Shown here in pieces: positions 861-16,217 of a DNA stretch of 64,000 nt. The DNA is from Pseudoips prasinana (taxonomy: Eukaryota; Arthropoda; Insecta; Lepidoptera; Nolidae). Under the pieces are notes generated by a model. The model did no database searches, was not told the origin of the DNA, and saw only the letters and a list, made by a program, of their open reading frames with translations. Positions within the stretch are counted from its first letter, which is position 1. The number at the start of each line of letters is the position of its first letter. The translations under genes were made by a program, and so were the position numbers. The stretch is taken from assembly GCA_951640165.1 (NCBI GenBank), contig OX621256.1, positions 7,502,001 through 7,566,000 on the forward strand. Reading direction: 5' to 3'.

Positions 861-984
861 AAGTGTAGTCAATTTAATAAATTAAATAATATATAGGTAT
901 TCTACTTATATCGTATGTTTTTATTTCACAGTTGTACAGTCCAGAGAACACAGAACACCATTCACAAGATCATGTAGTACAATT

Positions 985-3900
985 ATGACTTGTGCACAAT
1001 GTAAAACTGAAATACCACGAAATCAGTATGCATATCATATGAGAACTAATATACACAAGACTAATAGTTTATTGAGAACTGAATTCAAAAATATTTTTAT
1101 TGTAGCAACAGCATTTAAAAACAGAATTGTAACTTTTCGTCTGAACTTAACTCAGGATGACGAGCACCTCACTTGTGAGGCGATCCCGAGTAAAACTCAG
1201 ACATATAAAACTCGGGATGACGAGCACCTCACTTGTGAGGCGATCCCGAGTAAAACTCAGACAGATAAAACTCGGGATGACGAACATCTCACATGCGAGG
1301 CGATCCCTAGTAATACTCAGGTATATGAAAAAAGACAGGATGCCGAGCACCTCACACCGGAGGCGATTCTGAATTCAGTGCTTCCAGATGTTAATAAATT
1401 AATTACTATGATACTGAACAAGTATGATTGCATAAAAGTAAATTTTGAGCTTTTTGTTAAGTTTATTTTACTAAAATCTGACCATGAACAACTAGAATTG
1501 AAATCTTTCAACACTAAGTATGATATTATCTATAAAAATACTGATATAAATGACTTTTTTTTAAATAAAATTGATATCTTGATACGGAAGATGTCTGAAT
1601 TTGAACACGTGCAGTCAGGTTGGACATATCTTTCGCTAAGTTATATTGAGATAAATATAAGTAAATATTGTCCCATGAGTGGTGGCACGTACTTAAAGTT
1701 GCCATCAGTTATAAAAAATACTAAAAGTTGTTTGAATTTACGTAATAATGATGAGTGTTGTTTCTTATGGTGCGTTGTAGCTGCATTATTTCCTCGTACA
1801 AATAATGTGTGCAGAACGGCGTCTTATCCTCATTATAGTGAAGTTCTTAATATCCAAGGAATGTCATTACCTCCTTCTTATAATGATATCAAACTTTTCG
1901 AATTGATAAATCCTACAATAAGTATTACCATATATGGGTTAGACAACAAATACGTTGTCACTGGACCTTTATATATGACAAATAAGAAAAAGGAAAATCA
2001 TATTAATTTATTATATATTGAACAGAATGGAAAAGGACATTACTGTTTAATAAAAGATCTCATACGTTTAGTGCGACGTCAGATTACTCGTCATCATGGC
2101 AAAGTTTTCTTATGTGATTCATGTTTACAGTTTTTTACAAATGAAAATAAGTACACATCTCATTCTTGTTCTAAAATATTGACTATATTACCAGAAAAAA
2201 ATACCATATTGAAATTTAAACACTATGAAAGACAACTTAAAATTAATTTTATTATTTATGCTGATTTTGAGAGCTTGTTAATAAATTGTAATGAGAATAG
2301 CTCTAAAAATACTACAACGCTAAAAATGCATCAGCCGTCAAGTTTCGCATACTACATATGCTGTTTGCATGATAATAAACTTAACAAGTTTGTCACGTAC
2401 AGAGGCATAGATTGTGTCAAAGTATTTTTAAAACGTTTAGTAAAAGATGTTAAACGAATAAACAAAATTATGTCCACTCATTTATCAATGAAACCTTTAA
2501 CTTATAATCAAGAACGAGAATATCAAAATGCAACTAAGTGTCATATATGTAATCAGTTATTGGCCGGAGACAAAGTTCACGATCATGATCATATTACTTC
2601 CGAGTATAGAGGGGCAGCTCACTCACATTGTAATTTGATGTACAAAGTGTGTCCATTCATACCAGTGGTATTTCATAATCTAAGTGGTTATGACTCGCAT
2701 ATATTTATTAGAGAGTTGGCTAATTATGAAGGTTCAGTTAAAATAATACCAAAAACAAAAGAAAAATATCTTACAATAACCAAGTTAATAATGACAAAAA
2801 AAGGTACTCGCTCAGTACAGATTAAGTTTATTGATTCATTTCATTTTCTTAGCTCAAGCTTAGATTCGTTAAGTAAAAGCTTGTCAGAAAAAGATTTTGT
2901 TTATTTGTCAAGAGAATTTACCGACATAACTAAACTTAATTTATTATGTAAGAAAGGTATTTATCCATATGATTATATGGACGATTGGTCAAAATTTAAT
3001 GAAAATCAACTACCTCCAAAATCCAGTTTTTATAATAGTTTAACTATGGAATCTCTATCAGATGACGAATATGCTCACGCTCAAGATATTTGGAACAATT
3101 TTAAGATAACAACGCTTGGTGAATACAGTGATCAGTATTTGAAATGTGATGTTTTGTTGTTATGCGACATATTTGAAAAATTCAGAGACACAAGTTTAAA
3201 TTTTTACAAACTGGATCCCGCTCACTATGTGACTTCACCTAGTTTGAGCTGGGACGCTATGCTTCTGTACACTAACGCTGAATTAGAGCTCATTAGTGAC
3301 TTCGAAATTTATACATTTATTGAAAAAGGTATACGAGGGGGCTTGGCACAATGTTTCCTCCGTCATGTTAAGGCAAATAATAAGTATTTACCTCATTATA
3401 ATGATTTAAAACCCTCGAGTTATTTGATATATCTAGATTGCAATAATCTTTACGGTTATGCAATGACTAAAAAATTGCCTGTTTCAGAGTTCAGATTTTT
3501 AACTCAGCATGAAATTGATAGCTTTAATGTATTGCATGTATCAGATGACAGTTTGTATGGTTTTATTTTAGAAGTAGATTTATATTACCCGGATTGTATT
3601 CATGATCAGCATAAAGACTTACCATTTGCTGCAGAGAAATGTATACCCCCAGGAGGGAAATCAGCTAAGTTAATTGCTAATCTGTATGATAAATCAAATT
3701 ATGTTATTCATTACGTACATTTAAAACAATGCATAAAAAATGGTTTGATTTTAAAAAAAGTTCATCGCATACTAACCTTTAGACAAGATGATTTCTTAAA
3801 GAAATATATAGATCTTAATACTAATCGACGTATGGCATCTAAAACTTCTTTTGAAAAAGATTTTTTTAAACTTCTAAATAATGCAATATTTGGTAAAACT

Positions 3901-4671
3901 ATAGAAAATAAAAGGAAACAAGTTGATATAAAACTGGTAACCAAATGGGATGATAAAACAAACTTCACGAATAAGAAACTATGTGCACAAAAATTGATTT
4001 CGAAACCTAATTTAAAAAGTGTGTCAATATTTGCAGAAGATTTTGTAGCTATACAATTGAATCGTGATAAAATAATATTAGACCGACCAATTTACATCGG
4101 ATTTACAGTTCTGGAGTACGCCAAACAGCACCTTTATCAGTTTCACTATGATTTTATAAAAAAGAAATATGGAGATAAAGTTGAATTATGTTATACAGAT
4201 ACCGATAGTTTACTTTATGTAATCCATACAGACGACTTTTATTATGATATACACGAAAATATAACACAATTTGATTCTAGTAATTTCCCAGTAGATAATC
4301 AATATGGCATACCTAGAATCAACTCAAAAATCCCTGGCCTTTTTAAAGATGAAATGGGGGGTGATGTGATTACAGAATTGATAGGCTTAAGAGCAAAACT
4401 CTATTGTATTGAAAGTTTGAAGACAAAAATAGCAAAAGCGAAAGGTATGTCTAAGTCTGTCACAAAGCATTTAAAACTAACAGATTATAGCGACTCTTTG
4501 TTATTAGATAAAAGTCAATCCTTAAACATGAATATGATAAGATCTATCAAACATATATTGTACTCACAACAAGTTAGTAAACAAGTATTAAATAGAAACG
4601 ATGACAAGATTCAGATACTTTCAGATGGCATCCACACCTTGCCTTGGGGGTATTGTGATGCGATGATCTAA
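985..4671 (+). CDS. Protein-primed family B DNA polymerase (pPolB)
   Basis: Replicates the linear element by protein priming; a defining Polinton gene. The 1,228 residues fit the family. The N terminus has a C2H2-like finger (CAQC ... H x5 H). Residues 519-551 form an HNH/endonuclease VII-like cysteine-histidine module (CHIC ... DHDH ... HCN). Exo I is YADFES at about 425-430. Polymerase motif A is LDCNNLYGY with Asp at 818, motif B is K962xxxNxxFG, and motif C is YTDTD at 1070-1074. All catalytic aspartates seen are present and the frame has no breaks, so the enzyme may be functional. The ATG at 985 is the first in frame and gives the zinc-finger N terminus. An internal 20-residue repeat occupies residues about 58-130. 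Confidence 0.95.
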   Translation: MTCAQCKTEIPRNQYAYHMRTNIHKTNSLLRTEFKNIFIVATAFKNRIVTFRLNLTQDDEHLTCEAIPSKTQTYKTRDDEHLTCEAIPSKTQTDKTRDDEHLTCEAIPSNTQVYEKRQDAEHLTPEAILNSVLPDVNKLITMILNKYDCIKVNFELFVKFILLKSDHEQLELKSFNTKYDIIYKNTDINDFFLNKIDILIRKMSEFEHVQSGWTYLSLSYIEINISKYCPMSGGTYLKLPSVIKNTKSCLNLRNNDECCFLWCVVAALFPRTNNVCRTASYPHYSEVLNIQGMSLPPSYNDIKLFELINPTISITIYGLDNKYVVTGPLYMTNKKKENHINLLYIEQNGKGHYCLIKDLIRLVRRQITRHHGKVFLCDSCLQFFTNENKYTSHSCSKILTILPEKNTILKFKHYERQLKINFIIYADFESLLINCNENSSKNTTTLKMHQPSSFAYYICCLHDNKLNKFVTYRGIDCVKVFLKRLVKDVKRINKIMSTHLSMKPLTYNQEREYQNATKCHICNQLLAGDKVHDHDHITSEYRGAAHSHCNLMYKVCPFIPVVFHNLSGYDSHIFIRELANYEGSVKIIPKTKEKYLTITKLIMTKKGTRSVQIKFIDSFHFLSSSLDSLSKSLSEKDFVYLSREFTDITKLNLLCKKGIYPYDYMDDWSKFNENQLPPKSSFYNSLTMESLSDDEYAHAQDIWNNFKITTLGEYSDQYLKCDVLLLCDIFEKFRDTSLNFYKLDPAHYVTSPSLSWDAMLLYTNAELELISDFEIYTFIEKGIRGGLAQCFLRHVKANNKYLPHYNDLKPSSYLIYLDCNNLYGYAMTKKLPVSEFRFLTQHEIDSFNVLHVSDDSLYGFILEVDLYYPDCIHDQHKDLPFAAEKCIPPGGKSAKLIANLYDKSNYVIHYVHLKQCIKNGLILKKVHRILTFRQDDFLKKYIDLNTNRRMASKTSFEKDFFKLLNNAIFGKTIENKRKQVDIKLVTKWDDKTNFTNKKLCAQKLISKPNLKSVSIFAEDFVAIQLNRDKIILDRPIYIGFTVLEYAKQHLYQFHYDFIKKKYGDKVELCYTDTDSLLYVIHTDDFYYDIHENITQFDSSNFPVDNQYGIPRINSKIPGLFKDEMGGDVITELIGLRAKLYCIESLKTKIAKAKGMSKSVTKHLKLTDYSDSLLLDKSQSLNMNMIRSIKHILYSQQVSKQVLNRNDDKIQILSDGIHTLPWGYCDAMI
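1156..1377 (+). repeat. In-frame 60-bp tandem repeat inside the polymerase gene
   Basis: Three close copies start at 1157, 1217 and 1277, and a diverged fourth at 1340 (63-bp step). Each encodes about 20 residues around DDEHLTCEAIPS. Copies one and two differ at very few bases, which suggests recent expansion. The repeat lies between the N-terminal finger and the conserved polymerase body, so length change there should be tolerated. Confidence 0.9.
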
Positions 4672-5111
4672 ACCAGTGTTCGTTAAACTTGTTTTTTTTT
4701 TGTTCTTATTACGTTTAAATTAAGAACCAATTAATATGTAATCCACCTGTTCTAAATTATATTTATTTATAGCAGCAACACAGTTCATAATACTATTGCT
4801 GTTATCTTCGTTTTAAGTAATATTGTTATGTATGTTTTTGTTCCACAATAAACTATTATTATTATTATTTGAAAATATGATATAAAATACTAGAATAAGA
4901 ATAAATTAATGTATTGTATAGAAATGATGTATGATAATTACTTTAGAATAAGGTATGTACTATAAATAAATATATTAGCCTACTATTACTATGAACTTAT
5001 AATAAAATGTTATGTCTCAAACAATGGACTTTTATTCCTAAACATCATCTTCATCATCAAATTTAAGTTCATGCTTGCTTTATGATGAGGTTGATGTACT
5101 CGTAGTAACGA
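4672..5111. other. AT-rich spacer between polymerase and ATPase genes
   Basis: About 440 bases without a convincing ORF on either strand. It contains T runs, several AATAAA-like signals (near 4848, 4970 and 5000) that could end the polymerase transcript, and a TCATCATC stretch near 5050. Confidence 0.6.
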
Positions 5112-5120
5112 GTATATAAG
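5112..5120 (+). promoter_or_regulatory. TATA box candidate for the ATPase gene
   Basis: GTATATAAG lies 35-43 bases ahead of the ATG at 5155. No clear TCAGT initiator follows, so the start of transcription is unresolved. Confidence 0.45.
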
Positions 5121-5154
5121 TGTACTATAAGTGGTAATAAGGTTAATATACACT

Positions 5155-5841
5155 ATGAAGTTGATCAAACAACCCATATCTCTCAGTGTTAATAATATAA
5201 GATTAAGTGACTGTTATCAACACATCAGACATAGCGCTTTATTGCCAAATATCGTGCGCTGTATAATATGCGGTCCATCAAACTGTGGTAAAACGAATGT
5301 TATGATTAGTTTACTACTGCATGAAAATGGACTCAAATTTAAAAATCTTTATCTTTACTCGAAAACTTCTTTTCAACCGAAATATCGTTTCTTGACCGAA
5401 GTATTAAAAAGAGTGCCACAGATTAACTTTTACGAGTTCAATGATGATAAAGATGTCATATCTCCGAGTGAAGCTTTAACAAATTCTGTATTTATTTTCG
5501 ATGATGTTGCTTGTGAAAATCAAATAAATATCCGCAATTATTTCTGCATGGGTAGACATAAACAAATAGATTGTTTCTATTTATCTCAAACTTATTCTAA
5601 AATTCCGAAGCAATTGTTACGTGATAATGTTAATTTTCTTATTATATTCAAACAAGATGATGTGAATTTAAAGCATATTTATGAAGAGCATGTTAGTTCT
5701 GATTTACAATGGAAAGAGTTCAGAAATCTTTGTCAAACTGTTTGGAGTAAACCTTATAATTTTCTACTTATTAATAAAGAATCGTCATTAAATAATGGGA
5801 GGTACAGACAGAATTTTGATATGTTTTTTAAATTTGACTGA
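5155..5841 (+). CDS. FtsK/HerA (A32-like) genome-packaging ATPase
   Basis: Predicted to hydrolyse ATP to pump element DNA into a capsid; a standard member of the Polinton morphogenesis module. 228 residues from the ATG at 5155; an in-frame GTG at 5131 is less likely. Walker A is GPSNCGKT at residues 40-47, and Walker B is VFIFDD at 112-117 after a hydrophobic strand. A polar SQTYSKIP segment further on fits the sensor region. Length is typical and the frame is intact. It sits between polymerase and the conserved 273-residue protein, separated from both by promoter-like DNA, so it is probably transcribed alone. Confidence 0.9.
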   Translation: MKLIKQPISLSVNNIRLSDCYQHIRHSALLPNIVRCIICGPSNCGKTNVMISLLLHENGLKFKNLYLYSKTSFQPKYRFLTEVLKRVPQINFYEFNDDKDVISPSEALTNSVFIFDDVACENQINIRNYFCMGRHKQIDCFYLSQTYSKIPKQLLRDNVNFLIIFKQDDVNLKHIYEEHVSSDLQWKEFRNLCQTVWSKPYNFLLINKESSLNNGRYRQNFDMFFKFD

Positions 5842-5853
5842 CTGATATGTACA

Positions 5854-5886
5854 TATAAGTAATTAACATGCAAAGTCAAATTCAGT
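5854..5886 (+). promoter_or_regulatory. TATA-initiator core promoter
   Basis: TATAAG at 5854-5859 and TCAGT at 5882-5886 are 30 bases apart (TATA first T to initiator A), the usual arthropod core-promoter spacing. The ATG follows at 5932, giving a leader of about 48 bases. Confidence 0.6.
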
Positions 5887-5931
5887 ATAATTTGTTCTTT
5901 AGCTTCATACAGTTGTTATAATAGGCACAAC

Positions 5932-6753
5932 ATGGAGAAAAATATTAAAATAGAATTAATGAAGTCTGTAGACTCCATAAAGAATAAAATAAAGCAAATT
6001 AAAAACCAGGAACACTCAATGAACTTGTCACTTAACAAAATGTTAAAACCTGTCACAGATCCCCTTAAAACCCTAGTTGATTCGAACAAAACAATAGAAA
6101 AAATACAAAATTTAGAAAATACACGCTCTAATTTTGAAGACATGGAATTGGATGACATTAATACTAGCTCATCTACAAAGTTTGAAGAATGCTGCGATCC
6201 AGAACTGAATTCTGTACAGTTCGTTAAAAAGTCTCCCCAGACAGAATTACTGAAAGATTTAGAAATGTCATTAGAGGGCTGTGATATCCATGATATTTAT
6301 GATGGGGTAAATATACCATTTGGAATAAGGAGTGCAAACAAAAAATTACTAATGGGTAATTCAATGGTTTCATTTTCTAAAATAGATAGCGTGAATGATG
6401 ACAATGTCATTTTAATTAAAGTTGGTGACAAAAGCTACAATTTAACCCCTGGTTTAAAAGAACTTTTACTTCGAAGAAAACCTGATTTGAAACTAATATC
6501 GAGCAAAGATAAGCTTGTCTATAAAGACATGTTGCATTATACAAATGCTCATAAGAGAGATTTCAATTCTAATGGACAAATTAGAGGCGATAAAGGTATA
6601 AAATATCGTGAAATAATTAGACCATTGTTTTCTGAATCGTTAAACAATAATATTATCACTAAATTTGGAGGAGACTTACCAACGCTAAAGAAATACAAAA
6701 ATAACACAGACTTGGTATATTGGGATGATCCTAACGAACTGGTTGACAGATAG
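5932..6753 (+). CDS. Conserved Polinton protein of unknown role (DUF8207-like), shortened by a stop
   Basis: 273 residues. The N-terminal 110 residues are lysine/glutamate-rich with heptad-like leucines and are probably coiled coil. The C-terminal half, from about residue 120, carries a block with LTPGLKELLLRRKPDL followed by a tyrosine/arginine-rich stretch that I recall from proteins beside arthropod Polinton ATPase and integrase genes; the family name is from memory. Function is unknown; a virion or DNA-packaging role is only inferred from position. The TAG at 6751 looks premature: the same frame runs on for 32 codons of similar composition to a TAA at 6850-6852. So the gene is either lightly broken, read through, or miscalled at one base. 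Confidence 0.7.
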   Translation: MEKNIKIELMKSVDSIKNKIKQIKNQEHSMNLSLNKMLKPVTDPLKTLVDSNKTIEKIQNLENTRSNFEDMELDDINTSSSTKFEECCDPELNSVQFVKKSPQTELLKDLEMSLEGCDIHDIYDGVNIPFGIRSANKKLLMGNSMVSFSKIDSVNDDNVILIKVGDKSYNLTPGLKELLLRRKPDLKLISSKDKLVYKDMLHYTNAHKRDFNSNGQIRGDKGIKYREIIRPLFSESLNNNIITKFGGDLPTLKKYKNNTDLVYWDDPNELVDR

Positions 6754-6852
6754 AAATTATTAATTGCTTCCCGAGATGCTGGTAATACAAACCATGATAA
6801 TGAAATTTTATCAATAATCGAAGAATTAAAAGAAGCTGATATAATTAAATAA
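6754..6852 (+). other. Same-frame continuation after the TAG of the preceding gene
   Basis: Thirty-two sense codons and a TAA directly follow the TAG in the same frame. The segment is charged and helix-like, as expected for the natural C terminus of this family. No ATG of its own makes sense. The bases around the TAG do not match the CARYYA readthrough consensus. Confidence 0.65.
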
Positions 6853-6885
6853 TAAATAGTCATAATAACATGCTTTTTATTCAGT
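6851..6885 (+). promoter_or_regulatory. Weak TATA plus TCAGT initiator ahead of integrase
   Basis: AATAAATA at 6851 and TCAGT at 6881-6885 have about 30-base spacing. The same TTCAGTATAAT string occurs at 5881. The integrase ATG is at 6926. Confidence 0.45.
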
Positions 6886-6925
6886 ATAATAGCTGAGTTC
6901 AAGACAAGTATACTGAATTGTGAAC

Positions 6926-7855
6926 ATGAGCAAAGCTGACGTGGTAAACGAAATTCATAAAAATGCGAGGGTGAACTATCCACGAAGACATGTTATCACG
7001 AAAGATATAGATGACTTGTGGCAAGCAGACTTAATTGATATGCAGTCAATTTCAAAAGAAAATAAAAATTACAGATATATTCTTGCCATTATTGATACAT
7101 TTTCGAAATATGCTTGGGCCTTTCCAATGAGAAGTAAAACCAAAGAAGATGTGTGTAACTCTTTCAAAACTTTGTTGGATAAAGGGCGTGTTCCTAAAAA
7201 TCTGCAAACGGATAATGGAGCAGAATTTTATAATAACAAATTTCAGAAGCTTATGAAATCATATAATATTAACCATTATTCAACCTTCTCAACAAAAAAG
7301 GCTTCAATAGTTGAACGATTTATCAGGACACTGAAATCTAAAGTTTATAAGGAATTTAGTTTAAAAGGCAATTACAATTGGATAAATAATACTCTAAATG
7401 ATGTTATTTACAAATACAATCACACTCACCATCGCACTATTAATGAAATCCCTGCTAATGTGGACAATATTAATAAAAAAAATATATTAGAAAGGTATTT
7501 AAAGTTGCTAAAAAAATATAATTTAAAAAGCAAATACAAAGTAGGTGATTATGTGCGTATCAGTAAATACAAAGGAACATTTGAAAAAGGTTACACTCCC
7601 AACTGGTCAACAGAAATATTTAAAATTCGTAAAATACAAAAAACAACTCCCATAACTTACTTAATTGAAGATACTATCAGAGGTCACCCTATTTTAGGCG
7701 CATTTTATACACAAGAACTTCAAAAAACAAAACATCCCAATGTATATCTAGTTGAGAAAGTTCTTAGAAGAAAAGGTAACAGAGTTTTAGTAAAATGGTT
7801 GGGGTTGTCTTCAGCTGAAAGCAGTTGGATTGATAAATCGAATGTAATATTATAA
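6926..7855 (+). CDS. Retroviral-type integrase with C-terminal chromodomain
   Basis: Would join element ends to chromosomal DNA. 309 residues from the ATG at 6926 (a GTG lies two codons upstream). The catalytic core has Asp35 in LWQADLIDM, Asp96 in QTDNGAEF and Glu130 in SIVERF, the DDE pattern with 33 residues between the last two. An SH3-like region (about 200-250, YKVGDYVRISK) follows. A chromodomain occupies about residues 272-309 with YLVEKVLRRK and the aromatic W of VKWLG. The chromodomain may tether integration to methylated histone tails. All catalytic residues are present and the frame is intact. Confidence 0.93.
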   Translation: MSKADVVNEIHKNARVNYPRRHVITKDIDDLWQADLIDMQSISKENKNYRYILAIIDTFSKYAWAFPMRSKTKEDVCNSFKTLLDKGRVPKNLQTDNGAEFYNNKFQKLMKSYNINHYSTFSTKKASIVERFIRTLKSKVYKEFSLKGNYNWINNTLNDVIYKYNHTHHRTINEIPANVDNINKKNILERYLKLLKKYNLKSKYKVGDYVRISKYKGTFEKGYTPNWSTEIFKIRKIQKTTPITYLIEDTIRGHPILGAFYTQELQKTKHPNVYLVEKVLRRKGNRVLVKWLGLSSAESSWIDKSNVIL

Positions 7856-7888
7856 ATAATATTAACAACAAACTCGAATCGCATAACT

Positions 7889-7921
7889 ATTTATTAAAGT
7901 ATTCAAACCGGAATCATCAGT
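7889..7921 (+). promoter_or_regulatory. TATA-like plus TCAGT initiator ahead of the PLA2 gene
   Basis: TTTATTAA near 7889 and TCAGT at 7917-7921 are about 30 bases apart. The ATG at 7928 would leave a leader of under 10 bases, so the true start may be a little upstream. Confidence 0.4.
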
Positions 7922-7927
7922 CTTATA

Positions 7928-8704
7928 ATGTGTTTTGGAGAGAGTAGTCTTCTCAATTGGCTTATTAATAATTTACCATTTGAATTGCACTTACCAGGAT
8001 ATAATTACTGCGGTCCTGGTACTAAATTAATAAAAAGACTTGCACAAGGAGATAACGGTGTAAATAAGTTGGACGAATTTTGCAAAGATCACGATATTGC
8101 ATATCACAAGTCATCAAACTTGAAAGATCGACATAAGGCTGACTTAATTTTGTTAAAAATGGCAAAACAGCGAGCGGTTGCTTCCGATGCTAGTATGGGC
8201 GAAAAACTCGCGGCACGCTTAGTAAGCAAGGCTATGTCGGCAAAAATTAAAACTGGTTCTGGTTTGAGGAAAAGGCGTTCTCCAAAAGTTACATCTGGAA
8301 AAGGATTAAAAAGTAAATTAAAAACTGTTATTACAAAAGCAAAAAGACACATGAAAAAATTAAAACCTAAGAGTAAGAAAATGGCTATAGAATTAGCTAT
8401 TGCCGCTACTAGAGAATTAGCTAATGATTCATCGATTAAGCTCCCTCGTGTTATTCCTATTCCAAAAACTGGGGGAGTACTACCTTTGATTCCTATTTTT
8501 GCGGGATTATCAGCAGCGGGAGCTTTAGCAGGCGGTGTAGCTGGTATTGCCAAAACCATAAATGAATTCAAAATGGCTAAAAAGCTGTATGAGGAATCGA
8601 GGAGACACAATAATAAAATGGAAGCTCTATGTATTGGGAAAGGACTACACCTTAAACCACATAAGGGCGGCCTTGGAATTTTCATATCAAAAGAAAAAAA
8701 CTAA
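7928..8704 (+). CDS. PLA2-domain minor virion protein with C-terminal hydrophobic/basic region
   Basis: 258 residues. Residues about 19-62 match the parvovirus-VP1-like phospholipase A2 fold: YCGPG is the calcium-loop motif and CKDHDIAY carries the catalytic His-Asp pair. In parvoviruses this enzyme opens endosomal membrane; a membrane-breaching role here is inference. Residues about 100-150 are very basic (nuclear targeting or DNA binding). A glycine/alanine-rich hydrophobic segment at about 180-205 could insert in membrane, and the end is conserved-looking (glycine-rich, charged). The stop at 8702 is preceded directly by the slippery heptamer A AAA AAC, and the protease frame continues in -1. 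Confidence 0.85.
   Translation: MCFGESSLLNWLINNLPFELHLPGYNYCGPGTKLIKRLAQGDNGVNKLDEFCKDHDIAYHKSSNLKDRHKADLILLKMAKQRAVASDASMGEKLAARLVSKAMSAKIKTGSGLRKRRSPKVTSGKGLKSKLKTVITKAKRHMKKLKPKSKKMAIELAIAATRELANDSSIKLPRVIPIPKTGGVLPLIPIFAGLSAAGALAGGVAGIAKTINEFKMAKKLYEESRRHNNKMEALCIGKGLHLKPHKGGLGIFISKEKN
8695..8704 (+). promoter_or_regulatory. Candidate -1 ribosomal frameshift site (A AAA AAC, then TAA)
   Basis: In the PLA2 frame the last bases read A AAA AAC TAA, a canonical X XXY YYZ heptamer touching the stop. A one-base backward slip enters frame 1, which is open from 8665 through the protease to its stop at 9073-9075. That frame has no ATG between 8665 and 8788. I see no strong stem or pseudoknot just downstream, only weak GC pairing around 8710-8727, so efficiency cannot be judged. 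Confidence 0.6.
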
Positions 8705-9075
8705 GATATCGGCTACCCAAACGGGCCTTAACTAACTTTGACATTTTAAAGTATGGAAATAGAATACCTTATTTTAGAGGTGTCTTTATGAGAGATGAGC
8801 TCCCTAAATATCCATATAAAAAAGAATGCGGGGTTATTAATTTAGATAGTTCTAAAAATCCTGGTTCTCATTGGGTAGCCTATGCAAAATATAATGATTA
8901 TGTCGAGTATTTCGACAGTTATGGAAATCTTAAACCTCCAAAGGAATTTATAAAATATGTAGGTTCTAACATTCAATATAATTATGAAAATATACAACGT
9001 GATCACCCCTTCAACTGTGGACATCTATGTTTAAATTTCTTAAAGAACTTTTGGTATAATCAAGAAATAAAATAA
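8701..9075 (+). CDS. Adenain-like (Ulp1/C5) cysteine protease, probably made as a -1 frameshift fusion
   Basis: Would mature capsid proteins. Counting from the first ATG (8788), His28 in SHWVAY, Asp43 in YFDSYG, Gln70 and Cys77 in FNCGHLC form the adenovirus-protease pattern of His, acidic, oxyanion Gln and Cys. The first in-frame ATG gives only 95 residues and omits an N-terminal block that the family normally has. That block (ALTNFDI, then FRGVF) is encoded just upstream in the open frame from 8701 but has no ATG. The simplest reading is translation by -1 slippage from the PLA2 gene, about 382 residues in total. Alternatives are a lost start codon, a non-AUG start, or use of the 8788 ATG. 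Confidence 0.8.
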   Translation, partial: LRYRLPKRALTNFDILKYGNRIPYFRGVFMRDELPKYPYKKECGVINLDSSKNPGSHWVAYAKYNDYVEYFDSYGNLKPPKEFIKYVGSNIQYNYENIQRDHPFNCGHLCLNFLKNFWYNQEIK

Positions 9076-9100
9076 ACAGGATCATTTAAAAGAGTTCAGT
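9066..9100 (+). promoter_or_regulatory. TATA-like plus TCAGT initiator ahead of the capsid operon
   Basis: An A/T box (AATAAAATAAA) at about 9066 and TCAGT at 9096-9100 precede the ATG at 9109. This would drive the four overlapping genes that follow. Confidence 0.45.
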
Positions 9101-9108
9101 ATGCAAGC

Positions 9109-9519
9109 ATGTCTACAACGGTTACCATCTCTGGAAATAAATCAGAACTGGTCTCGTATTTTCAACCACCTCTTCATTTATCTGATCAATACGAGTGCGG
9201 TTTACTATACTTTTCAGTAAAAACAAGACCGAATGTGCCCGTTAATAACAGCAGTTTAACAGCTGTAATCAGAATCGAATGTGATCTTGTGCACGGTTCA
9301 TATTACAACGGATTACCGACTCATTTTGTTCATGAATTCATATCTGAAACTGCTTCAAGTCACGGCTACACAGAAATACCCCAGAACGTTATTTACTTCC
9401 CAGTGAACAAAAATATAATTCCATCTATATCTGTTAAGATTGTTGATCAACTTGGTAACTGTATTAACTTTGGTGAAGAACATATTCAATTACGCCTTCA
9501 TTTACGAAAATCAAAATGA
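9109..9519 (+). CDS. Minor capsid (penton-like, single jelly-roll) protein
   Basis: 136 residues. The order of a short N-terminal strand with GNKSELVSYF, a PPLHL turn and a YECGLLYF strand matches my memory of Polinton penton proteins, which lie just ahead of the major capsid gene. Alternating hydrophobic strands through the rest fit a jelly roll. It would occupy capsid vertices. It begins the unit of four genes joined by ATGA overlaps: its TGA at 9517-9519 overlaps the next ATG at 9516. Family assignment rests on position and pattern; no structure search was possible. Confidence 0.7.
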   Translation: MSTTVTISGNKSELVSYFQPPLHLSDQYECGLLYFSVKTRPNVPVNNSSLTAVIRIECDLVHGSYYNGLPTHFVHEFISETASSHGYTEIPQNVIYFPVNKNIIPSISVKIVDQLGNCINFGEEHIQLRLHLRKSK

Positions 9520-9662
9520 TAGTATATTATAAAAACACTCCTGTGAAAATCAAACGTCTTATTCCATCTACGACCATTAAGGAGCATAGACGTAAGAAAA
9601 AAGTGAAGAAATTGAGTGAAGCAAATAAAGCTTTTCTTAAAACTTTAGGTTTTAAAGTATGA
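9516..9662 (+). CDS. 48-residue basic protein between the capsid genes
   Basis: A small gene. It overlaps both neighbours by ATGA: its ATG lies in the stop of the penton gene and its TGA at 9660-9662 overlaps the MCP ATG at 9659. It is strongly basic (HRRKKKVKK) with a conserved-looking end (ANKAFLKTLGFKV). Small basic proteins at this place recur in Polintons and may be virion or DNA-condensing components like adenovirus core peptides, which is inference. Exact overlap on both sides argues that it is translated. Confidence 0.75.
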   Translation: MIVYYKNTPVKIKRLIPSTTIKEHRRKKKVKKLSEANKAFLKTLGFKV

Positions 9663-10864
9663 ATATACTACAAATTACTGAATTACCTCACTTCGATAGT
9701 TCGATTGAAAGCTATGAAGTCCACACATACAATCCCTACACTAACAGCTTTAGAGAAAACGATGAAATCAGAATTCCCATACACCAACAAGACATATACG
9801 TGTTACCATCAGCCAGTTCAATTTACGTCGAGGGTCAAGCAAAGTTCTTCGACAAAGATGGAAAACCGATTAAGAAAAATATTACGTTCAGTAACAACCC
9901 TGTTATGTTTTTGTTTCAAGATATCAGATACGAAATAAATGGCATTGAAATAGATCGCATTAAAAATTCTGGAATAACATCGACAATAAAGTCATACGTT
10001 TCAATGAATGATGGAGAAAATAAAGTTGCTGCTTTGTGGGGTTGGAACATAGATGGATTCAAAAGTGATGATCATTTTAGTGCTATTGTACCTCTTAATA
10101 AGATTTTAGGATTTGCGGAGGATTACAATAAAATTGTGATAAATTGTAAACATGAACTTATTTTGAATAGAAGTAACTCTAATTTAAACAGTATCATAGC
10201 AACTGATGATATTGCGCATTTTCAAATAGACATACAAAGATTGCAATGGCGTGTACCACATATAAAAGTGTCAGACCGTGAACGACTGACACTACTAAAA
10301 CACTTGGAAAGAGATAAACCTATTCAAATAGCGTTTCGAAATTGGGATTTATATGAGTATCCTTTGCTCCCTAAAACTACAAAACATTCTTGGTCAGTTA
10401 AGACTGCATCGCAATTAGAGAAACCTCGGTATGTAATTTTTTGCTTGCAAACCAACAGAAAAAATAATAAAACCAAAGACAGTTCTTTGTTTGATCACTG
10501 TGGGGTTACTAACGTAACACTATTTTTGAATTCACAGTATTATCCTTACGAGCCTCTAAGCTTAAATTTTTCTGAGAACAAATACAATATATTATATGAA
10601 ATGTACGTGAAATTTCGTCAGTCGTATTACAACTGTCCTGCAGACCCCTTGCTTAATTTGATTGATTTCAAGGAGAAGGCCCCTCTCTTTATTATAGACT
10701 GTTCAAGACAAAACGATAGTTTGAAAACAGGCCCCGTAGATGTACGGTTGGAGATTGAATGTTCAGCGCCAATACCAGATCACACAACTGGATATTGTTT
10801 AATTATTAACGATCGGCTTGTGGAATATAAACCTTTAAGTAACATAGTGCGCAGATTATCATGA
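9659..10864 (+). CDS. Major capsid protein (double jelly-roll)
   Basis: Would form pseudo-hexameric capsomers of an icosahedral shell. 401 residues, somewhat short but within the range I know for arthropod Polintons. The N terminus has the family signature of FDSSIESYE then a tyrosine/asparagine turn and DEIRIPIHQQD, followed by LPSASSIYVEG. The remainder is strand-rich with NPVMFLFQDIRYEINGIE. The frame is intact. It starts in the stop of the 48-residue gene and ends overlapping the next ATG (ATGA at 10861), so translation by termination-reinitiation is likely. Confidence 0.85.
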   Translation: MNILQITELPHFDSSIESYEVHTYNPYTNSFRENDEIRIPIHQQDIYVLPSASSIYVEGQAKFFDKDGKPIKKNITFSNNPVMFLFQDIRYEINGIEIDRIKNSGITSTIKSYVSMNDGENKVAALWGWNIDGFKSDDHFSAIVPLNKILGFAEDYNKIVINCKHELILNRSNSNLNSIIATDDIAHFQIDIQRLQWRVPHIKVSDRERLTLLKHLERDKPIQIAFRNWDLYEYPLLPKTTKHSWSVKTASQLEKPRYVIFCLQTNRKNNKTKDSSLFDHCGVTNVTLFLNSQYYPYEPLSLNFSENKYNILYEMYVKFRQSYYNCPADPLLNLIDFKEKAPLFIIDCSRQNDSLKTGPVDVRLEIECSAPIPDHTTGYCLIINDRLVEYKPLSNIVRRLS

Positions 10865-11259
10865 CAGCCATTGTAGATGTTCAAGGTTTCAAAACAGAAA
10901 CAAATGAATTTATCGTTAAAGAATTTGCTGTAATATTGAATGAAAAAATTCAGGTGTTTTTAATTAAGCCACCATTTCCATTTTACGATTTGACGAAACC
11001 AGAAAAACGACAAGTCAGTTGGATTGAACGTAATAGAAGGATATACTGGAGAGACGGATTTGTACCCTACTCAAATCATCAAAATTTGATTGTAGATATT
11101 TTAAGAGATAAAAGTGTTTACACCAAAGGTTTAGAAAAAGTGTTATGGTTAAAAAATATTTTGAATAATAATAATATAAATAATTTAGAAGATGAAGGTT
11201 GTCCTAATTTATTAAGCTTATACAATAAATGTTCATATTTATTGTATAAGCTTAATTAA
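10861..11259 (+). CDS. Small conserved Polinton protein of unknown function
   Basis: 132 residues, last gene of the ATGA-linked block. A DVQGFKTE start, KPPFPF, and a WIERNRRIYWRDG motif are features I recall from unannotated genes beside Polinton capsid genes. The DxxGF start could belong to an RNase H-like fold, but no catalytic set is evident. The gene ends in leucine/asparagine-rich sequence, and its last codons form one arm of a long hairpin. Confidence 0.6.
   Translation: MTAIVDVQGFKTETNEFIVKEFAVILNEKIQVFLIKPPFPFYDLTKPEKRQVSWIERNRRIYWRDGFVPYSNHQNLIVDILRDKSVYTKGLEKVLWLKNILNNNNINNLEDEGCPNLLSLYNKCSYLLYKLN
11212..11255. repeat. 19-bp perfect inverted repeat at the end of the capsid operon
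   Basis: Arms 11212-11230 and 11237-11255 pair without mismatch around a 6-base loop, and cover the last codons of the preceding gene. AATAAA-like sequences follow near 11327. It could stabilise or end the transcript. Confidence 0.85.
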
Positions 11260-11427
11260 TTATTCTCATGATGTGTATAGTTGTATTTATCATGATAAAA
11301 TATGTGCTTTAAAAAATGTAATATGTTTAAATAAATGGTGTATAGATAATAAATTTTTGAAATAAATATTTGCTTGTTTAATTTTCAAATCCTCTATCCC
11401 TACCAATCCCATCAAATGTTAATCATT

Positions 11428-11461
11428 ATAAATTGCTGGCTACCGCAGTACGATATCATTT
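11428..11461 (+). promoter_or_regulatory. TATA-initiator core promoter ahead of the BIR gene
   Basis: TATAAA at 11428-11433 and TCATTT at 11456-11461 (matching the arthropod TCAKTY initiator) are 30 bases apart. The ATG lies at 11522. This separate promoter suggests control independent of the capsid block. Confidence 0.55.
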
Positions 11462-11521
11462 CACCTTTATATTTATCTGTATGAAGAACTTTAGTATAGT
11501 TATATATTGAGTGAACAGAAC

Positions 11522-11842
11522 ATGTCTCTAAATAAATGTAGCCCTCGTTATGACATGTATAATGCGTATAAAATGCGTGAAATTTCGTTTAGACATTATT
11601 GGGCAACGACTAATTCAAGGAGAAGGTTGGTGATGGAAATGGCTGAAGCCGGTTTTTTTTATTATGGAAATAGTGTAAATGATAAAGCAGCGTGTTTCTC
11701 ATGTGGAGGTGTTATAGAAGATTGGGAGATTTACGACGATCCTTGGATGCAACATGCTATACATTTTCCTCAATGTCTTTATTTGAATGCTGTGAAAGGA
11801 ATATATTATATTAATAACTGTCTAAAACATATGGGTAAATAG
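11522..11842 (+). CDS. Single-BIR (IAP-like) protein
   Basis: 106 residues from the ATG at 11522. One complete BIR zinc module: Cys58-x2-Cys61-x16-His78-x6-Cys85, preceded by the aromatic-glycine segment FFYYGN and containing DPW and HFPQC, as in inhibitor-of-apoptosis proteins. There is no RING domain and only one BIR, so it is not a full IAP. BIR proteins bind caspases or pro-apoptotic peptides, and large insect DNA viruses carry them to delay cell death. A similar accessory role here is inference. It has its own promoter and lies at the element's right margin, typical for captured cargo. Confidence 0.85.
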   Translation: MSLNKCSPRYDMYNAYKMREISFRHYWATTNSRRRLVMEMAEAGFFYYGNSVNDKAACFSCGGVIEDWEIYDDPWMQHAIHFPQCLYLNAVKGIYYINNCLKHMGK

Positions 11843-12085
11843 GCATAAAGTCGACTACCAAAAAAAATTGATATTTACGTGTACATTTAAATTTCTTGTG
11901 ATATCTATTACATTAAAATAGTTAAATATTAAAGACCACTCAATAGTCAAGTCAGAATATTTTGCAGGTACTATTTAAAAACAATGAATGATGGTTATAA
12001 TTGGGTGTTTCTGGATCTAAAATGATTCTATAATGAATGGTGAAAATTGTGGGTTTCCAGATCTTGAATATTGATGAAATGAATA

Positions 12086-12135
12086 GTAAAATTGGGGTGA
12101 CCTGGATCTCCTTGATCCAGGTCCCCCAATTTTAC
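12086..12135. repeat. 22-bp-stem hairpin
   Basis: Arms starting GTAAAATTGGGG and ending CCCCAATTTTAC pair almost perfectly around a short loop. Diverged partial copies of the same segment lie just upstream (about 11,990-12,060). It may mark the end of an unidentified mobile element. Confidence 0.7.
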
Positions 12136-12205
12136 TCTACTGTAGCTCTGCTTAGTTTGGGATCAGATGGCCGTGTGTGAATAGTGTCCCAGGATATAAT
12201 AATTA
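12136..12205 (+). mobile_element. SINE-B 3' tail fragment
   Basis: Carries the CTTAGTTTGGGATCAGAT and GGCCGTGTGTG body shared with copies at 14,340, 25,590 and 33,870, ending in a TAAT-rich tail. Confidence 0.7.
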
Positions 12206-12893
12206 TTATCCATGAACTCAAAGGTAACTAAATGTATAACAGGGTTGCCTAGTTTAGCGGTCAGATGGTTATCGTTATCTACTGCTCCACCATTACATAT
12301 TTGTACATCATGCCTTTAGGTACAGAGCCGAGTCGGGGTGAGCCCCTCTCTGCTCGTAACACAGGTTAATTCCTAGCACGGGAGAGAGGTGTTTGTTCTC
12401 TCTGACTTACGGTTGTACCACTATGCAGTAGAAACTAATTTATTATAGTATAGACACTTTTTATTGCAAATAAAGAATTATTATTATAACATTTTCTCTA
12501 ATCAAAATCTTTGTTCCAAACCGCCAGGTCAGCATAAAATAGTTACGAAGTTAGTTTAGTAATGTGAAGACATCTTGTACAAAAGGAACATAACGACTCG
12601 CCAAGGGACATGTCAATCTTGAATCATTATAAAATATACAAAAAGCCTTTATTATGAGCGTGTAATTTAACATTTATTCCGAAAACATGTCCGTCATATA
12701 ATAAAAGAATCTTTTGATCTCCAAGTTTCCTTACAACTTCATAATTAACTTAATATGAGACAGTAAAAACAACTTGCTGTTGACATGTGAGTTGTGTACG
12801 ACGACATATTAAATATTTAGATGCCGAGGAGCTTATCGCAATAATGCGTTAGCCTTCGTCAAATGTGAAAATAATCATTTTTCTCACATTATA
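12206..12893. other. Unassigned AT-rich stretch
   Basis: No ORF of interest. Around 12,300-12,420 a GC-richer part with AATAAA-type sequence at 12,470 resembles a retroelement 3' end, but I cannot name the family. Confidence 0.4.
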
Positions 12894-12895
12894 TA

Positions 12896-13031
12896 CAGAC
12901 GCCAGCACATCCAACTACCCCAATCTGTCAAATTTCTTTATATAGATTTTTAACTTTATCTCAAAAGAATAAAGTTCATTTTCAAATGGGGAAATTTGGC
13001 AGATTGGGGTAGCTTGATGTGCTGGTGTCTG
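12896..13031. mobile_element. MITE-1 copy (TA-flanked, CAGACGCCAGCACA ends)
   Basis: 136 bp with inverted ends of about 40 bp and TA on both sides. One of seven copies in the window. Ends and TA duplication indicate a Tc1/mariner-type (possibly pogo) non-autonomous element. Confidence 0.9.
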
Positions 13032-13160
13032 TACATAAAAAATACAAGGAAGCGAGAAAGTAATGCGGGTAATAATAATAATAATTTATTTATTTCAAGT
13101 AACATGACTCATATTTGTTAGTAACAATAATTCTTAGATGTATATTAGTATACCTAAAAC

Positions 13161-13180
13161 AACACACACACACACACAAT
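13161..13180. repeat. (CA)n microsatellite
   Basis: Short run of CA dinucleotides. Confidence 0.9.
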
Positions 13181-13359
13181 CACTGCCACCATCCCAACAC
13201 TGAGGTGGACAGCTTGCAGCAGCGACTCACGTACAGACAATCGAGTCTGCTGGCCACACAGCTCATGATAATGTTGGGGCTGACCCGTACGCGGCGCACC
13301 AGGGAAGCGCATCGTTTTCTCATAAAATGTCTTCTATTTAAAATTATACGAATAATAGG

Positions 13360-13715
13360 TAGCTCCTAGCCGAATTTCGGCCACGGCGGCCAGTCTCAAT
13401 AGAGACTAGCCATCTGCACGGGACATATTATAGTGCACAAGTATGTTCGCAAACACAGGGGCACTTTTTATTCCATCACGTATAGCGCCAAGACCAGAAA
13501 GAGGGGTACAGGACCGATTACTCTACGTGCTCTCCGAGGTACGAGTGTATATTACCGCTAACGCCCAGACATTGGGCTGATACTGAGTAATTTTTCTTTT
13601 TATTGAAATATCCCAAAATGACTTGAACCGACCCGGTATTGAATCCACGACCTCGTTGTCTGCGGTTGAAATTGCTACCGGTAGACCAACGAAGCAATTA
13701 TAATATGAGACGTCA
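13360..13715 (-). mobile_element. SINE-D, near full length
   Basis: Reverse orientation of the tRNA-headed SINE seen complete at 46,305. The head with diverged A and B boxes lies at 13,620-13,715 and the GGCGGCC(A/T)GTCTCAATAG body at 13,385. The flanking 13,250-13,320 segment (MLGLTRTRR in frame) weakly resembles a reverse-transcriptase C-terminal piece. Confidence 0.75.
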
Positions 13716-14010
13716 TGTGTTGTTGGGTGGTCTCCGGTTAGATTTGCCATTATATCCGAAAGACTCCTAGTACCACTTTTATGTGAGTTATGGTTCTAAG
13801 GAGGTAAGTTAAGGTTTTCGAAAAACAAGAATACTTTTTAATGACGTCACTATAATTGTGGAACACACCATTAGCTTGATATCGGCCACTGTTGTGGACA
13901 AAGCCAAATGATGTGCACAATTCCACCCTGGAGATCTTTGTCCAGCTGTGGACGTCATTCGGCTTACTCATGTCACATCACGCCCTGTCCTGAGTATGGG
14001 TGTAGGTAAT

Positions 14011-14261
14011 TAATAATAATAATATCTAGGGACAATGTCACACAGATCATCCTAGCCCCAAACTAAGCAAAGCTTGTACTATGGGTACCAGGTGACGATA
14101 TACATACTTATATAGATAGATAAATACTTAAATACATAGAAAACATCCATGACTCAGAAACAAATATTCGTGCTCATCACACAAATATTTGCACTTACCG
14201 GGATTCGAACCCAGGACCACCAGCTTCGTAGGCAGGAGCACTACCAACTACGGTGACCGTA
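14011..14261 (-). mobile_element. SINE-A copy
   Basis: tRNA-derived head with B box GGTTCGAATCC (reverse strand), body with TTGCTTAGTTTGGGGCTAGG, and a TTATTATTAT tail. A few bases of the A-box region are missing compared with the copy at 21,341. Confidence 0.85.
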
Positions 14262-14334
14262 ATCTATGTATGTATGTGAATTATCTATGTAAGTATGTAA
14301 TTAGAAGAAAAGTAGTAATCGTAAATGTAGAATA

Positions 14335-14428
14335 TCAGTTATCTGGTTTCTACAATACAAGCTTTGCTTAGTTTGGGATCAAATGGCCGTGTGTGAATGA
14401 TGTCCCGGGATATTATTATATTATACTA
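14335..14428 (+). mobile_element. SINE-B 3' fragment
   Basis: Body TTAGTTTGGGATCAAATGG and tail GATATTATTATATTAT; the head is missing. Confidence 0.65.
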
Positions 14429-14660
14429 ATTACATTCACGAGCCTATTAACTGGCCAAATATTCGGCAATGCCATTGTCAAATAAGCATACTAGTTCTAA
14501 GAAGTCACTCGATTCATGTATAGATCGAACTCTATAGATTATTTATTTGTGTTTTGGTTGTCTATAAAATCGTGAAATCGGTCGTGCACGACCGTCTCAA
14601 CCTGTTTTCACTCCCTTAGTAGATGCTTAGTGACTTTCTCTTTATCTTCATTCCTTTGTA

Positions 14661-14796
14661 CAGACGCCAGCACATCAAGCTACCCCAATCTATCAAATTT
14701 CCCCGAATTGAAAGTGAACCTTATGCTTGTGTGATAAAGTTGGAAATCTATAAAAGAAATTCGACAGATTGGGGTAGCTATGTGTGCTGGCGTTTG
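14661..14796. mobile_element. MITE-1 copy
   Basis: 136 bp, TA on both sides, inverted ends as in the 12,896 copy. The middle carries the AAAGTGAACCTTATG segment shared by most copies. Confidence 0.9.
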
Positions 14797-14933
14797 TACT
14801 ACACAACCAATTTCGTTAATGTCTTTCATCACGACTCTCATAAAATAAAGACCGTTTTAAAGCACGCCGTGAACAATTCCCTCGATTTTAATACACATAA
14901 CATTCTCTGATGAAGGTTTACCATTTTTAGGGA

Positions 14934-15272
14934 TCCGTACCCAAAGGGTAAAATGGGACCCAGACTTCGCTGTCTGTCTATCCGTTTGTCACCAGGCGGC
15001 GGTGTCTCATGTACCGTGACAATTAGACAGTTGTTGATTTTCACAGATGATGTATTTCTGTTGCCGCTATAACACCAAATAGATACTAAAAACCAAAATA
15101 AAATAAATATTTAAGAGGGCTCCCATACAACAAACGTGAGATTTCTGTTCGTTTTTATAGATACCTACGGAACCCTTCGTGAGCGAGTCCAACTCGCACT
15201 TGGCCGGTTTTTAAGATAATGGTACGGAACCCTTCGTGCGCGTGTCCGGCTCGCACTTGGCCAGTTTTTGTT
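14934..15272 (+). repeat. AGGGTTCC...GGCCGGTTTTT interspersed repeat, internally deleted, with duplicated end
   Basis: Starts TTTTTAGGGATCCGTA and ends at the CTCGCACTTGGCCGGTTTTT motif (15,213), then repeats that end motif a second time (to about 15,272). A longer copy is at 25,965. It is a common insect dispersed repeat without clear inverted ends. Confidence 0.7.
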
Positions 15273-15899
15273 TTTTTTTTCAGTAAATCAGTCAACATTT
15301 TTAGAGAAAAATTACGAGAATATAAATTCTGATCAATTTGCAATCTCTCTTCGGCTTGTTCGAAAGCGGATTTCCAACTTTGCCGTTCGTTTCCAACCAT
15401 ATTTTTGGTGTGAAACTTTGGGTGGAAATATTTGTAGATGTTTAACAGATTTTGCAATAAAATCTATTAAAGTTAGGATCTACGTTTGGAAACTTCGCGT
15501 CAATTTGAATAAATTGACTGAACTATAAGCTAGGTTGCTAACTTGCAAATATATTTATTACTTGCTTGAGTACAAAATAACACTTTGGTACCCATTCCGA
15601 TATCTGTTTCAGTACTTAAACCCTTCATCTGTATTCATTTAATACATAAATTTAATTATTTTATTGTTAGTTTTAATCTTTATATCAACAACTATTCTTA
15701 TTGAAGCCTAAACTAAATTTATTCACTTCAGCACATTTGGACAATATACTTGCATAAATGAATATTCATATCATAACAATTCACATTTATTAATATATTA
15801 TTCTGACAAGTCTAGTTTAAGTAGAATCATAAATATTTATGCTTTTTATCCATATCCAAATGCTTGTAAAGTCCCCTGGATTCCCCTTTTATACTTACA
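15273..15899. other. Unassigned AT-rich stretch
   Basis: Short chance ORFs only; no homology recognised on either strand. Confidence 0.5.
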
Positions 15900-16217
15900 A
15901 CCCCTTACGGATCAATTGTTGTATGAAGAGGTTGTCGTGTTTAATGGGGTTAAGGCTCCGCGCTGGCCAATCCTAAAGACGAATACTAAGTTCTTGCAAA
16001 TAAGCATCTATGTGACCAAAACGGTAAGCTCGAGCATTATCGTCCATGTGAAATCGGATATTGAGAGTGAGCGAATAGAGAGTGCCCCTGTGTTTATGCC
16101 CAAACCTGCATTGCATCATGCCCCGTGCAGATGGCAAATCTCTATTGAGAAGGCCGCCAGAACCGAAATTGCACCATGAGAAATAATTATTTTCATTATA
16201 TCTCAACAATATATGAG
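15900..16217 (-). pseudogene. Tc1-like transposase fragment (reverse strand)
   Basis: The minus strand encodes FHMDDNARAYR followed by a DWPAR...LNPI segment, the second catalytic Asp and the C-terminal signature of Tc1/mariner transposases, with stops and gaps. Upstream of FHMDD the bases match the SINE-D body, so the copy is chimeric. It forms an inverted pair with the + strand copy at 17,040-17,330. Confidence 0.7.

What the first reader, a model, noticed from the sequence alone, without database searches (positions are those of the whole stretch)
8695..9075. Polinton protease may be expressed by -1 ribosomal frameshifting from the PLA2 gene
Seen directly: the PLA2 gene ends A AAA AAC TAA, a textbook slippery heptamer abutting the stop. 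The protease frame is exactly -1 to it. That frame is open from 8665, has no ATG until 8788, and the family-typical N-terminal block lies between the heptamer and 8788. Retroviruses use the same design to make gag-pro. I do not know of a report of it in Polintons. It would yield a PLA2-protease fusion in limited amount, fitting packaged protease.
Basis: partly seen in the sequence, partly recalled or inferred. Interest (0 to 1): 0.88.

Follow-up and report, generated by a model that had tools for sequence, protein, structure and literature searches.

The report
Moth virus protease made by frameshifting
In virus-like elements scattered through a moth genome, the capsid-maturing protease has no start codon of its own and sits just behind a conserved 'slippery' sequence that ends the phospholipase gene, so it is most likely made when ribosomes slip back one base, the trick retroviruses use to make gag-protease.

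Summary
PLA2X ends A AAA AAC TAA (8695-8704). The adenain-type protease lies in the -1 frame with no ATG before 8788. The window is one of many Polinton/adintovirus copies in a 1.13 Gb genome, by its relatives a moth. Of 141 junctions in nine subfamilies (protease identity down to about 55%), 134 keep heptamer plus stop at the same distance from the protease. The last PLA2X codon is AAC in 9 of 9 representatives although AAC is the minority Asn codon. The 29 codons between heptamer and first downstream ATG show purifying selection in the -1 frame only. Of 205 listed database PLA2X proteins, 186 end Lys-Asn; in 0 of 186 is the preceding residue one whose codons cannot end in A. I judge -1 ribosomal frameshifting about 82% likely. 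Against: no conserved stimulatory structure, no RNA or protein data, and 31 of 120 listed protease relatives may have their own start. A 2024 preprint already predicted -1 frameshifting in adintovirus Penton and a Hexon-Adenain fusion; my searches found no report of this site.

The parts
7928..8704 (+). PLA2X gene (PLA2-like domain plus C-terminal part), 258 aa; the zero frame
   Evidence: Pfam Phospholip_A2_4 E 3e-14; 91% identical to 'PLA2X [Spodoptera moth adintovirus 2]'
8695..8701 (+). slippery heptamer A AAA AAC, in phase with PLA2X, the last two sense codons
   Evidence: conserved with the stop at the same place in 134 of 141 copies
8702..8704 (+). PLA2X stop TAA directly behind the heptamer (TAA in F1-F7, TGA in F8 and F9)
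8665..9075 (+). open frame of the adenain-type protease, -1 to PLA2X; the part expected to be translated after the shift runs from 8701
   Evidence: adenain by profile (E 4e-05) and fold (1nln_A E 3.1e-06)
8701..8787 (+). 29 codons between heptamer and first ATG of the protease frame: conserved N-terminal block without start codon
   Evidence: pN/pS 0.30 in the -1 frame, no stop in that frame in 9 of 9 subfamilies; helix 24-31 and strand 37-42 of the model
8788..8790 (+). first ATG of the protease frame, inside the conserved block (Met42 of P0001)

Best explanation
The junction is a -1 ribosomal frameshift site. Most ribosomes finish PLA2X at the stop. A minority, with AAA and AAC in the P and A sites, slip back one base on A AAA AAC and continue into the protease frame, giving a PLA2X-protease fusion in limited amount. 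Shown here by sequence: heptamer, phase, stop, frame relation, missing ATG, their conservation, and selection on the -1 frame. Inferred: that the slip happens, that the fusion is carried into particles with the PLA2X protein, and that the protease is later released or acts from the fusion.
For: (1) Heptamer plus stop at the fixed place in 134 of 141 junctions; 123 of 141 also have a PLA2X frame open for at least 100 codons into it. (2) A AAA AAC in phase once per PLA2X and only there, 9 of 9 representatives; AAC is the minority Asn codon (25 AAC to 86 AAT over eight representatives, 17 to 86 without the terminal ones). (3) 29 codons without ATG under purifying selection in the -1 frame: pN/pS 0.30, against 1.4 and 1.77 in the other frames. 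(4) The -1 frame opens 0 nt (F6) and 6 nt (F8) upstream of the heptamer, so ribosomes from PLA2X can enter it only there. (5) 186 of 205 listed PLA2X relatives end Lys-Asn and 11 of the other 19 keep Lys-Asn 1-12 residues before their end; residue -3 is never one of F Y C H N D W M (0 of 186, against 49, 45 and 16 of 186 at -4, -5, -6). (6) 89 of 120 listed protease relatives have predicted starts only inside the conserved block; the 9 whose predicted start lies well upstream all read KKL at the place where the -1 frame would read the heptamer. (7) No listed PLA2X relative is long enough to be an in-frame fusion (205 proteins, 180-279 aa). (8) Several subfamilies have many copies with identical protease, e.g. 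16 of 150 rows at 100%, so the arrangement belongs to recently spreading copies.
Against: No conserved RNA structure at the usual 5-9 nt spacing: consensus fold only -2.8 kcal/mol over nine subfamilies, window z near -1; a review says levels above 1% almost always need a stimulator (passage of PMC7618472). F4 and F5 do fold better than shuffles (z down to -3.85 and -2.85) through a hairpin some 50-80 nt away that F6-F9 lack. No transcript, ribosome-profiling or peptide data. 31 of 120 protease relatives may start upstream of the block on their own. 8 of 205 PLA2X relatives lack Lys-Asn at the site (6 of these end in runs of Lys). Met42 is invariant in 34 of 34 aligned proteases, as a start codon would be. 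Three F3 copies carry a length change in the A run that puts both genes in one open frame.
Confidence: 0.82

Rival explanations
1. Transcriptional slippage: RNA polymerase stutters on the A run, so a fraction of mRNAs carry both genes in one frame.
For: The site is an A run, of 10 in most F3 copies (31 of 36) and 7-8 in F1, F2, F4-F7; natural length variants exist in the genome.
Against: F8 and F9 have a run of only six A in 23 copies. What is constant is the phase and the AAC codon followed by a stop, which polymerase stuttering does not need.
Confidence: 0.07
2. Internal or re-initiation: ribosomes stop at PLA2X and restart in the protease frame, at the ATG at 8788 or a near-cognate codon; relatives with an ATG by the PLA2X stop would be the clear cases.
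For: Met42 is invariant in 34 of 34 aligned sequences. Downstream genes of the same cassette begin at 4-nt ATGA overlaps in 15 of 18 junctions scored. 22 of 120 relatives have a predicted start within about three codons of the LP motif.
Against: A start at 8788 loses the helix and most of the strand modelled at residues 24-42, and the 29 lost codons are under selection. No near-cognate codon is shared in place by the nine subfamilies; the window has only ATC upstream of the block. The 11 paired relatives with a candidate start still keep Lys-Asn.
Confidence: 0.06
3. Splicing joins a leader exon with ATG to the protease frame.
For: Adenovirus late genes are spliced (recalled). AG dinucleotides lie just upstream of the heptamer in eight of nine representatives.
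Against: F6 has no AG between the -1 frame's upstream stop and the block, though only some F6 copies are intact. Splicing would not conserve AAA AAC stop in PLA2X.
Confidence: 0.04
4. Decay or a sequencing error; no functional site.
For: Polintons are often decayed: 96% of vertebrate Maverick loci are eroded (passage of PMC8097293). A runs are error-prone.
Against: Same arrangement in 134 of 141 copies and nine subfamilies, with selection on the orphan block.
Confidence: 0.01

Closest known systems
Retroviral gag-pro -1 frameshifting at A AAA AAC, e.g. mouse mammary tumour virus, HTLV (recalled, not tested)
   Same: Same heptamer, virion protein in the zero frame, protease in the -1 frame, no separate start
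   Different: Here a dsDNA element with a cysteine protease of the adenain kind; the stop follows the heptamer directly; no conserved pseudoknot or stem-loop found
Predicted -1 frameshifts in adintoviruses: Penton isoforms and Hexon-Adenain ('Hexain') fusions, PMC11071296 (section 16 read in full)
   Same: Same virus group, same mechanism proposed, adenain as one target
   Different: There a KnotInFrame prediction at the Penton and Hexon genes; here the PLA2X-protease junction with codon-level and multi-subfamily conservation
Sf Maverick 1 and 2 of Spodoptera frugiperda cells, PMC5803895 (passages)
   Same: Same gene kinds, CAP being the PLA2 protein and PRO the protease; described as transcribed; the database CAP protein P0294 ends Lys-Asn
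   Different: The passages I saw treat PRO as an ordinary ORF and mention no frameshifting for it
Adenovirus protease (adenain) with pVI cofactor peptide, PDB 1nln
   Same: Fold and profile match
   Different: Adenovirus makes the protease from its own start codon (recalled); the cofactor comes from another protein in trans

Membership tests
canonical -1 programmed ribosomal frameshifting | X XXY YYZ heptamer in phase with the upstream gene | tested here: met
   A AAA AAC, 9 of 9 representatives
canonical -1 programmed ribosomal frameshifting | downstream frame is -1, overlaps the site, and has no own start | tested here: met
   Met in 9 of 9 representatives (first ATG lies downstream of the start of the conserved block) and in the window. 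5 of 141 copies have an upstream ATG, through A-run length changes or damage
canonical -1 programmed ribosomal frameshifting | conservation beyond what the protein needs | tested here: met
   Minority codon AAC kept; residue -3 pattern 0 of 186
canonical -1 programmed ribosomal frameshifting | stimulatory RNA structure 5-9 nt downstream | tested here: not met
   No conserved structure; no Rfam match. Pseudoknots and long-range pairing were not modelled
canonical -1 programmed ribosomal frameshifting | measured fusion product | not testable with these tools
   No RNA, ribosome or peptide data
Polinton/adintovirus (Eupolintoviridae) | double jelly-roll capsid protein, A32-like ATPase, rve integrase | tested here: met
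   PF21738 390 bits, PF04665 27.7 and PF00665 56.0, each above its cut-off
Polinton/adintovirus (Eupolintoviridae) | protein-primed PolB | tested here: inconclusive
   1228-aa ORF 985-4671 gives only Endonuclease_7 below its cut-off and no polymerase family at E 0.01
Polinton/adintovirus (Eupolintoviridae) | chromodomain at the integrase C terminus | tested here: inconclusive
   Chromo 21.6 bits, under its cut-off of 25.1
Polinton/adintovirus (Eupolintoviridae) | terminal inverted repeats | tested here: inconclusive
   None flanking the genes in 1-16000 at 40 nt or more; the left end may lie outside the window
adenain (adenovirus-type cysteine protease) | sequence profile and fold | tested here: met
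   1avp_A E 4e-05; 1nln_A E 3.1e-06, TM 0.64. Pfam gives no peptidase hit for P0001
adenain (adenovirus-type cysteine protease) | catalytic His, acidic residue, Gln, Cys | tested here: met
   H69, Q111, C118 invariant and D84 nearly invariant in 34 sequences, placed by the alignment; that these are the catalytic positions is recalled

The most novel reading that the evidence does not exclude
A conserved family of animal dsDNA viruses doses and packages its maturation protease by -1 frameshifting from the end of a membrane-lytic capsid protein, convergent with retroviral gag-pro. Because the fusion puts the conserved PLA2X C-terminal peptide directly ahead of the protease, the shift may also supply in cis what adenovirus supplies in trans as the pVI cofactor peptide. 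It may work without a downstream RNA structure, aided by the following stop, the nascent peptide or a bound protein.
Probability: 0.3. Interest if true: 0.88.

Novelty: new variant of a known kind. Interest (0 to 1): 0.73.

Why it matters
If true, it says how these elements make their protease, which by its annotated start would be a truncated enzyme, and corrects gene models across many insect elements (89 of 120 listed relatives have predicted starts inside the conserved block). It adds a well-conserved frameshift site to eukaryotic dsDNA viruses, where I know of few (recalled), and a convergent route to the gag-pro logic with an unrelated protease. Spodoptera cell lines reported to transcribe such elements (PMC5803895, passages) make it testable.

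Tried and rejected
Viral and genome contig collections: single-sequence and alignment queries found no relative by tblastn. Rfam: nothing. In-frame PLA2X-protease fusion as the normal state: rejected (no listed PLA2X relative longer than 279 aa; three F3 copies only). Penton to small basic ORF as a second -1 site in the window: rejected, that ORF has its own ATG in an ATGA overlap. GCTACC, 10 nt after the heptamer in eight of nine representatives (GCTGCC in F9), as a stimulator: left open, because another invariant Leu codon (L116) is equally fixed. P0098 as query gave no new subfamily among the 150 rows shown.

Dropped rows and choices: 141 junctions = window + 120 of the 149 other places + 20 chosen; the rest were not fetched, and itself scored 150 of 302 candidates. 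First choices for F7, F8 and F9 (L085, L147, L133) were replaced by copies with longer PLA2X frames after one search failed part-way; F7 was left out of the PLA2X codon alignment because its PLA2X is truncated. F6 copies are partly decayed. In one search, four F3 copies whose A run has changed length still count as having heptamer and stop in place. Database PLA2X lists are the best 120 of 1275 and the best 120 of 2538. Starrett et al. 2021, the adintovirus paper, is not held: nothing of it was read.

Full report
What is there. The window lies in a 1.13 Gb genome of 56 contigs at C22:7502001-7566000. The host is a moth by inference: the closest PLA2X proteins are named from Spodoptera moth adintovirus 2, Trichoplusia ni and Helicoverpa armigera. 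The first 11 kb hold a Polinton/adintovirus cassette: A32-like ATPase, rve integrase, PLA2X, adenain-type protease, double jelly-roll capsid protein. PLA2X ends A AAA AAC TAA at 8695-8704; the protease frame 8665-9075 is -1 to it, and its first ATG is at 8788, inside a conserved N-terminal block.

Conservation in the same genome. One search scored 150 protease places of 302 candidates; 16 encode a protease identical to the window's. I took 120 of the other 149 places, 20 more, and the window: 141 junctions. They fall into nine groups, F1-F9, whose protease identity to the window runs from 100% to about 55%. Heptamer plus stop stands at the fixed distance in 134 of 141: F1 26 of 27, F2 21 of 23, F3 35 of 36, F4 6 of 6, F5 3 of 3, F6 4 of 5, F7 16 of 17, F8 14 of 15, F9 9 of 9. 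The stop is TAA in F1-F7 and TGA in F8 and F9. The A run varies from 6 to 11, so what is constant is A AAA AAC in phase. In three F3 copies the run length puts both genes in one frame; whether these are mutations or assembly errors I cannot say.

Codon evidence. Between F1 and F8 or F9, 53-57% of codons for unchanged PLA2X residues differ, so synonymous sites are well mixed. Yet in-phase A AAA AAC occurs exactly once in each of the nine PLA2X representatives, always at the end, although AAT outnumbers AAC 86 to 17 elsewhere in eight representatives. F1-F5 are related, so nine is not nine independent trials; with three independent lineages the chance of AAC alone is about 0.004 and of the full site about 0.0001.

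The protease block without a start. The 29 codons from heptamer to first conserved ATG have pN/pS 0.30 in the -1 frame and no stops there in 9 of 9, but 1.4 and 1.77 with 1-4 stops per subfamily in the other two frames (all 36 pairs pooled, so not independent; single contrasts gave 0.17-0.42). In the model of P0001 (mean pLDDT 84.5) this block forms a helix at 24-31 and a strand at 37-42. The fold matches adenovirus protease (1nln_A, E 3.1e-06, TM 0.64).

How ribosomes can get in. In F6 the -1 frame's upstream stop abuts the heptamer, and in F8 it lies 6 nt before it. F6 has no AG between that stop and the block, so a normal splice acceptor cannot serve there; some F6 copies are decayed, which weakens this point. 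No near-cognate start codon is shared in place by the nine.

Evidence from other species at protein level. Of 205 listed PLA2X relatives (best 120 of 1275 and best 120 of 2538), 186 end Lys-Asn, and 11 more keep Lys-Asn within 12 residues of the end. If the base before AAA must be A, residue -3 cannot be F, Y, C, H, N, D, W or M. It is one of these in 0 of 186, against 49, 45 and 16 of 186 at -4, -5 and -6, and 22% over whole proteins. Among 120 listed protease relatives, 65 have predicted starts at or after the GVFM Met, 24 inside the block, 22 just before LP and 9 further upstream. The predictor's start codons are unknown to me. In 11 of the 31 with an upstream start, a PLA2X with the same longest-contig length could be paired: 9 end Lys-Asn, 2 have Lys-Asn-Phe plus one residue.

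What does not fit. No conserved RNA structure lies at the usual spacing. The nine-way consensus fold is -2.8 kcal/mol. The window's z-scores lie between -0.3 and -1.2. F4 (z -3.85) and F5 (z -2.85) fold well through a hairpin some 50-80 nt downstream that F6-F9 lack. A review passage says that frameshifting above 1% almost always needs a stimulator (PMC7618472). The shift may therefore be modest, or helped by the stop, the nascent peptide, a protein or a pseudoknot that I did not model. A few molecules of protease per particle would suffice; that is an argument, not a result.

Mechanism and odds. I put -1 ribosomal frameshifting at 0.82, transcriptional slippage at 0.07, re-initiation or internal start at 0.06, splicing at 0.04, decay or error at 0.01. 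Slippage is disfavoured because F8 and F9 keep only six A (23 copies) and because phase and stop are constant. Packaging, processing and a cofactor role of the PLA2X C terminus are inference.

What is known. PMC11071296 (section 16 read in full; passages) predicts -1 frameshifting at adintovirus Penton and says a similar relationship was seen for potential Hexon-Adenain fusions. PMC5803895 (passages) describes transcribed Spodoptera Mavericks with CAP (the PLA2 protein) and PRO; no frameshifting of PRO is mentioned in those passages. My searches for frameshifting together with Polinton, Maverick, adintovirus, adenain or PLA2 (an open-licence library only) showed no report of this site in their listings or in the passages I opened. 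Starrett et al. 2021 is not held.

Noticed in passing
window 9516-9519, 9659-9662, 10861-10864: Three successive 4-nt ATGA stop-start overlaps: penton-like to small basic ORF, small ORF to capsid protein, capsid protein to next ORF. Such overlaps stand at 15 of 18 junctions scored in F1-F5, F8 and F9 (no hits in F6 and F7; F9 lacks its one). Suggests coupled translation from a polycistronic message.
   Followed up: partly
L061, L062, L063 (G000 C21, C28, C29): Three F3 copies have an A run of another length, so that PLA2X and protease share one open frame of 416 codons.
   Followed up: partly
8711-8717 and the same place in F1-F9: GCTACC begins 10 nt after the heptamer in eight of nine representatives, GCTGCC in F9.
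   Followed up: partly
downstream of the site in F1-F5: Hairpin some 50-80 nt after the heptamer, strong in F3-F5, absent in F6-F9.
   Followed up: no
PLA2X C terminus, window about 8630-8690: Strongly conserved motif of the form IGKGLxLKPxKxGxG before the variable tail; perhaps a cleavage site or protease cofactor peptide.
   Followed up: no
L086-L100 (F7): F7 copies have a PLA2X frame of at most 162 codons, so the N-terminal half is missing or broken, while the protease stays open.
   Followed up: no
G000, and rows: Many elements with identical protease: 16 rows at 100% and 16 rows at 88% with equal score, about 50 at 83%; signs of recent bursts.
   Followed up: no
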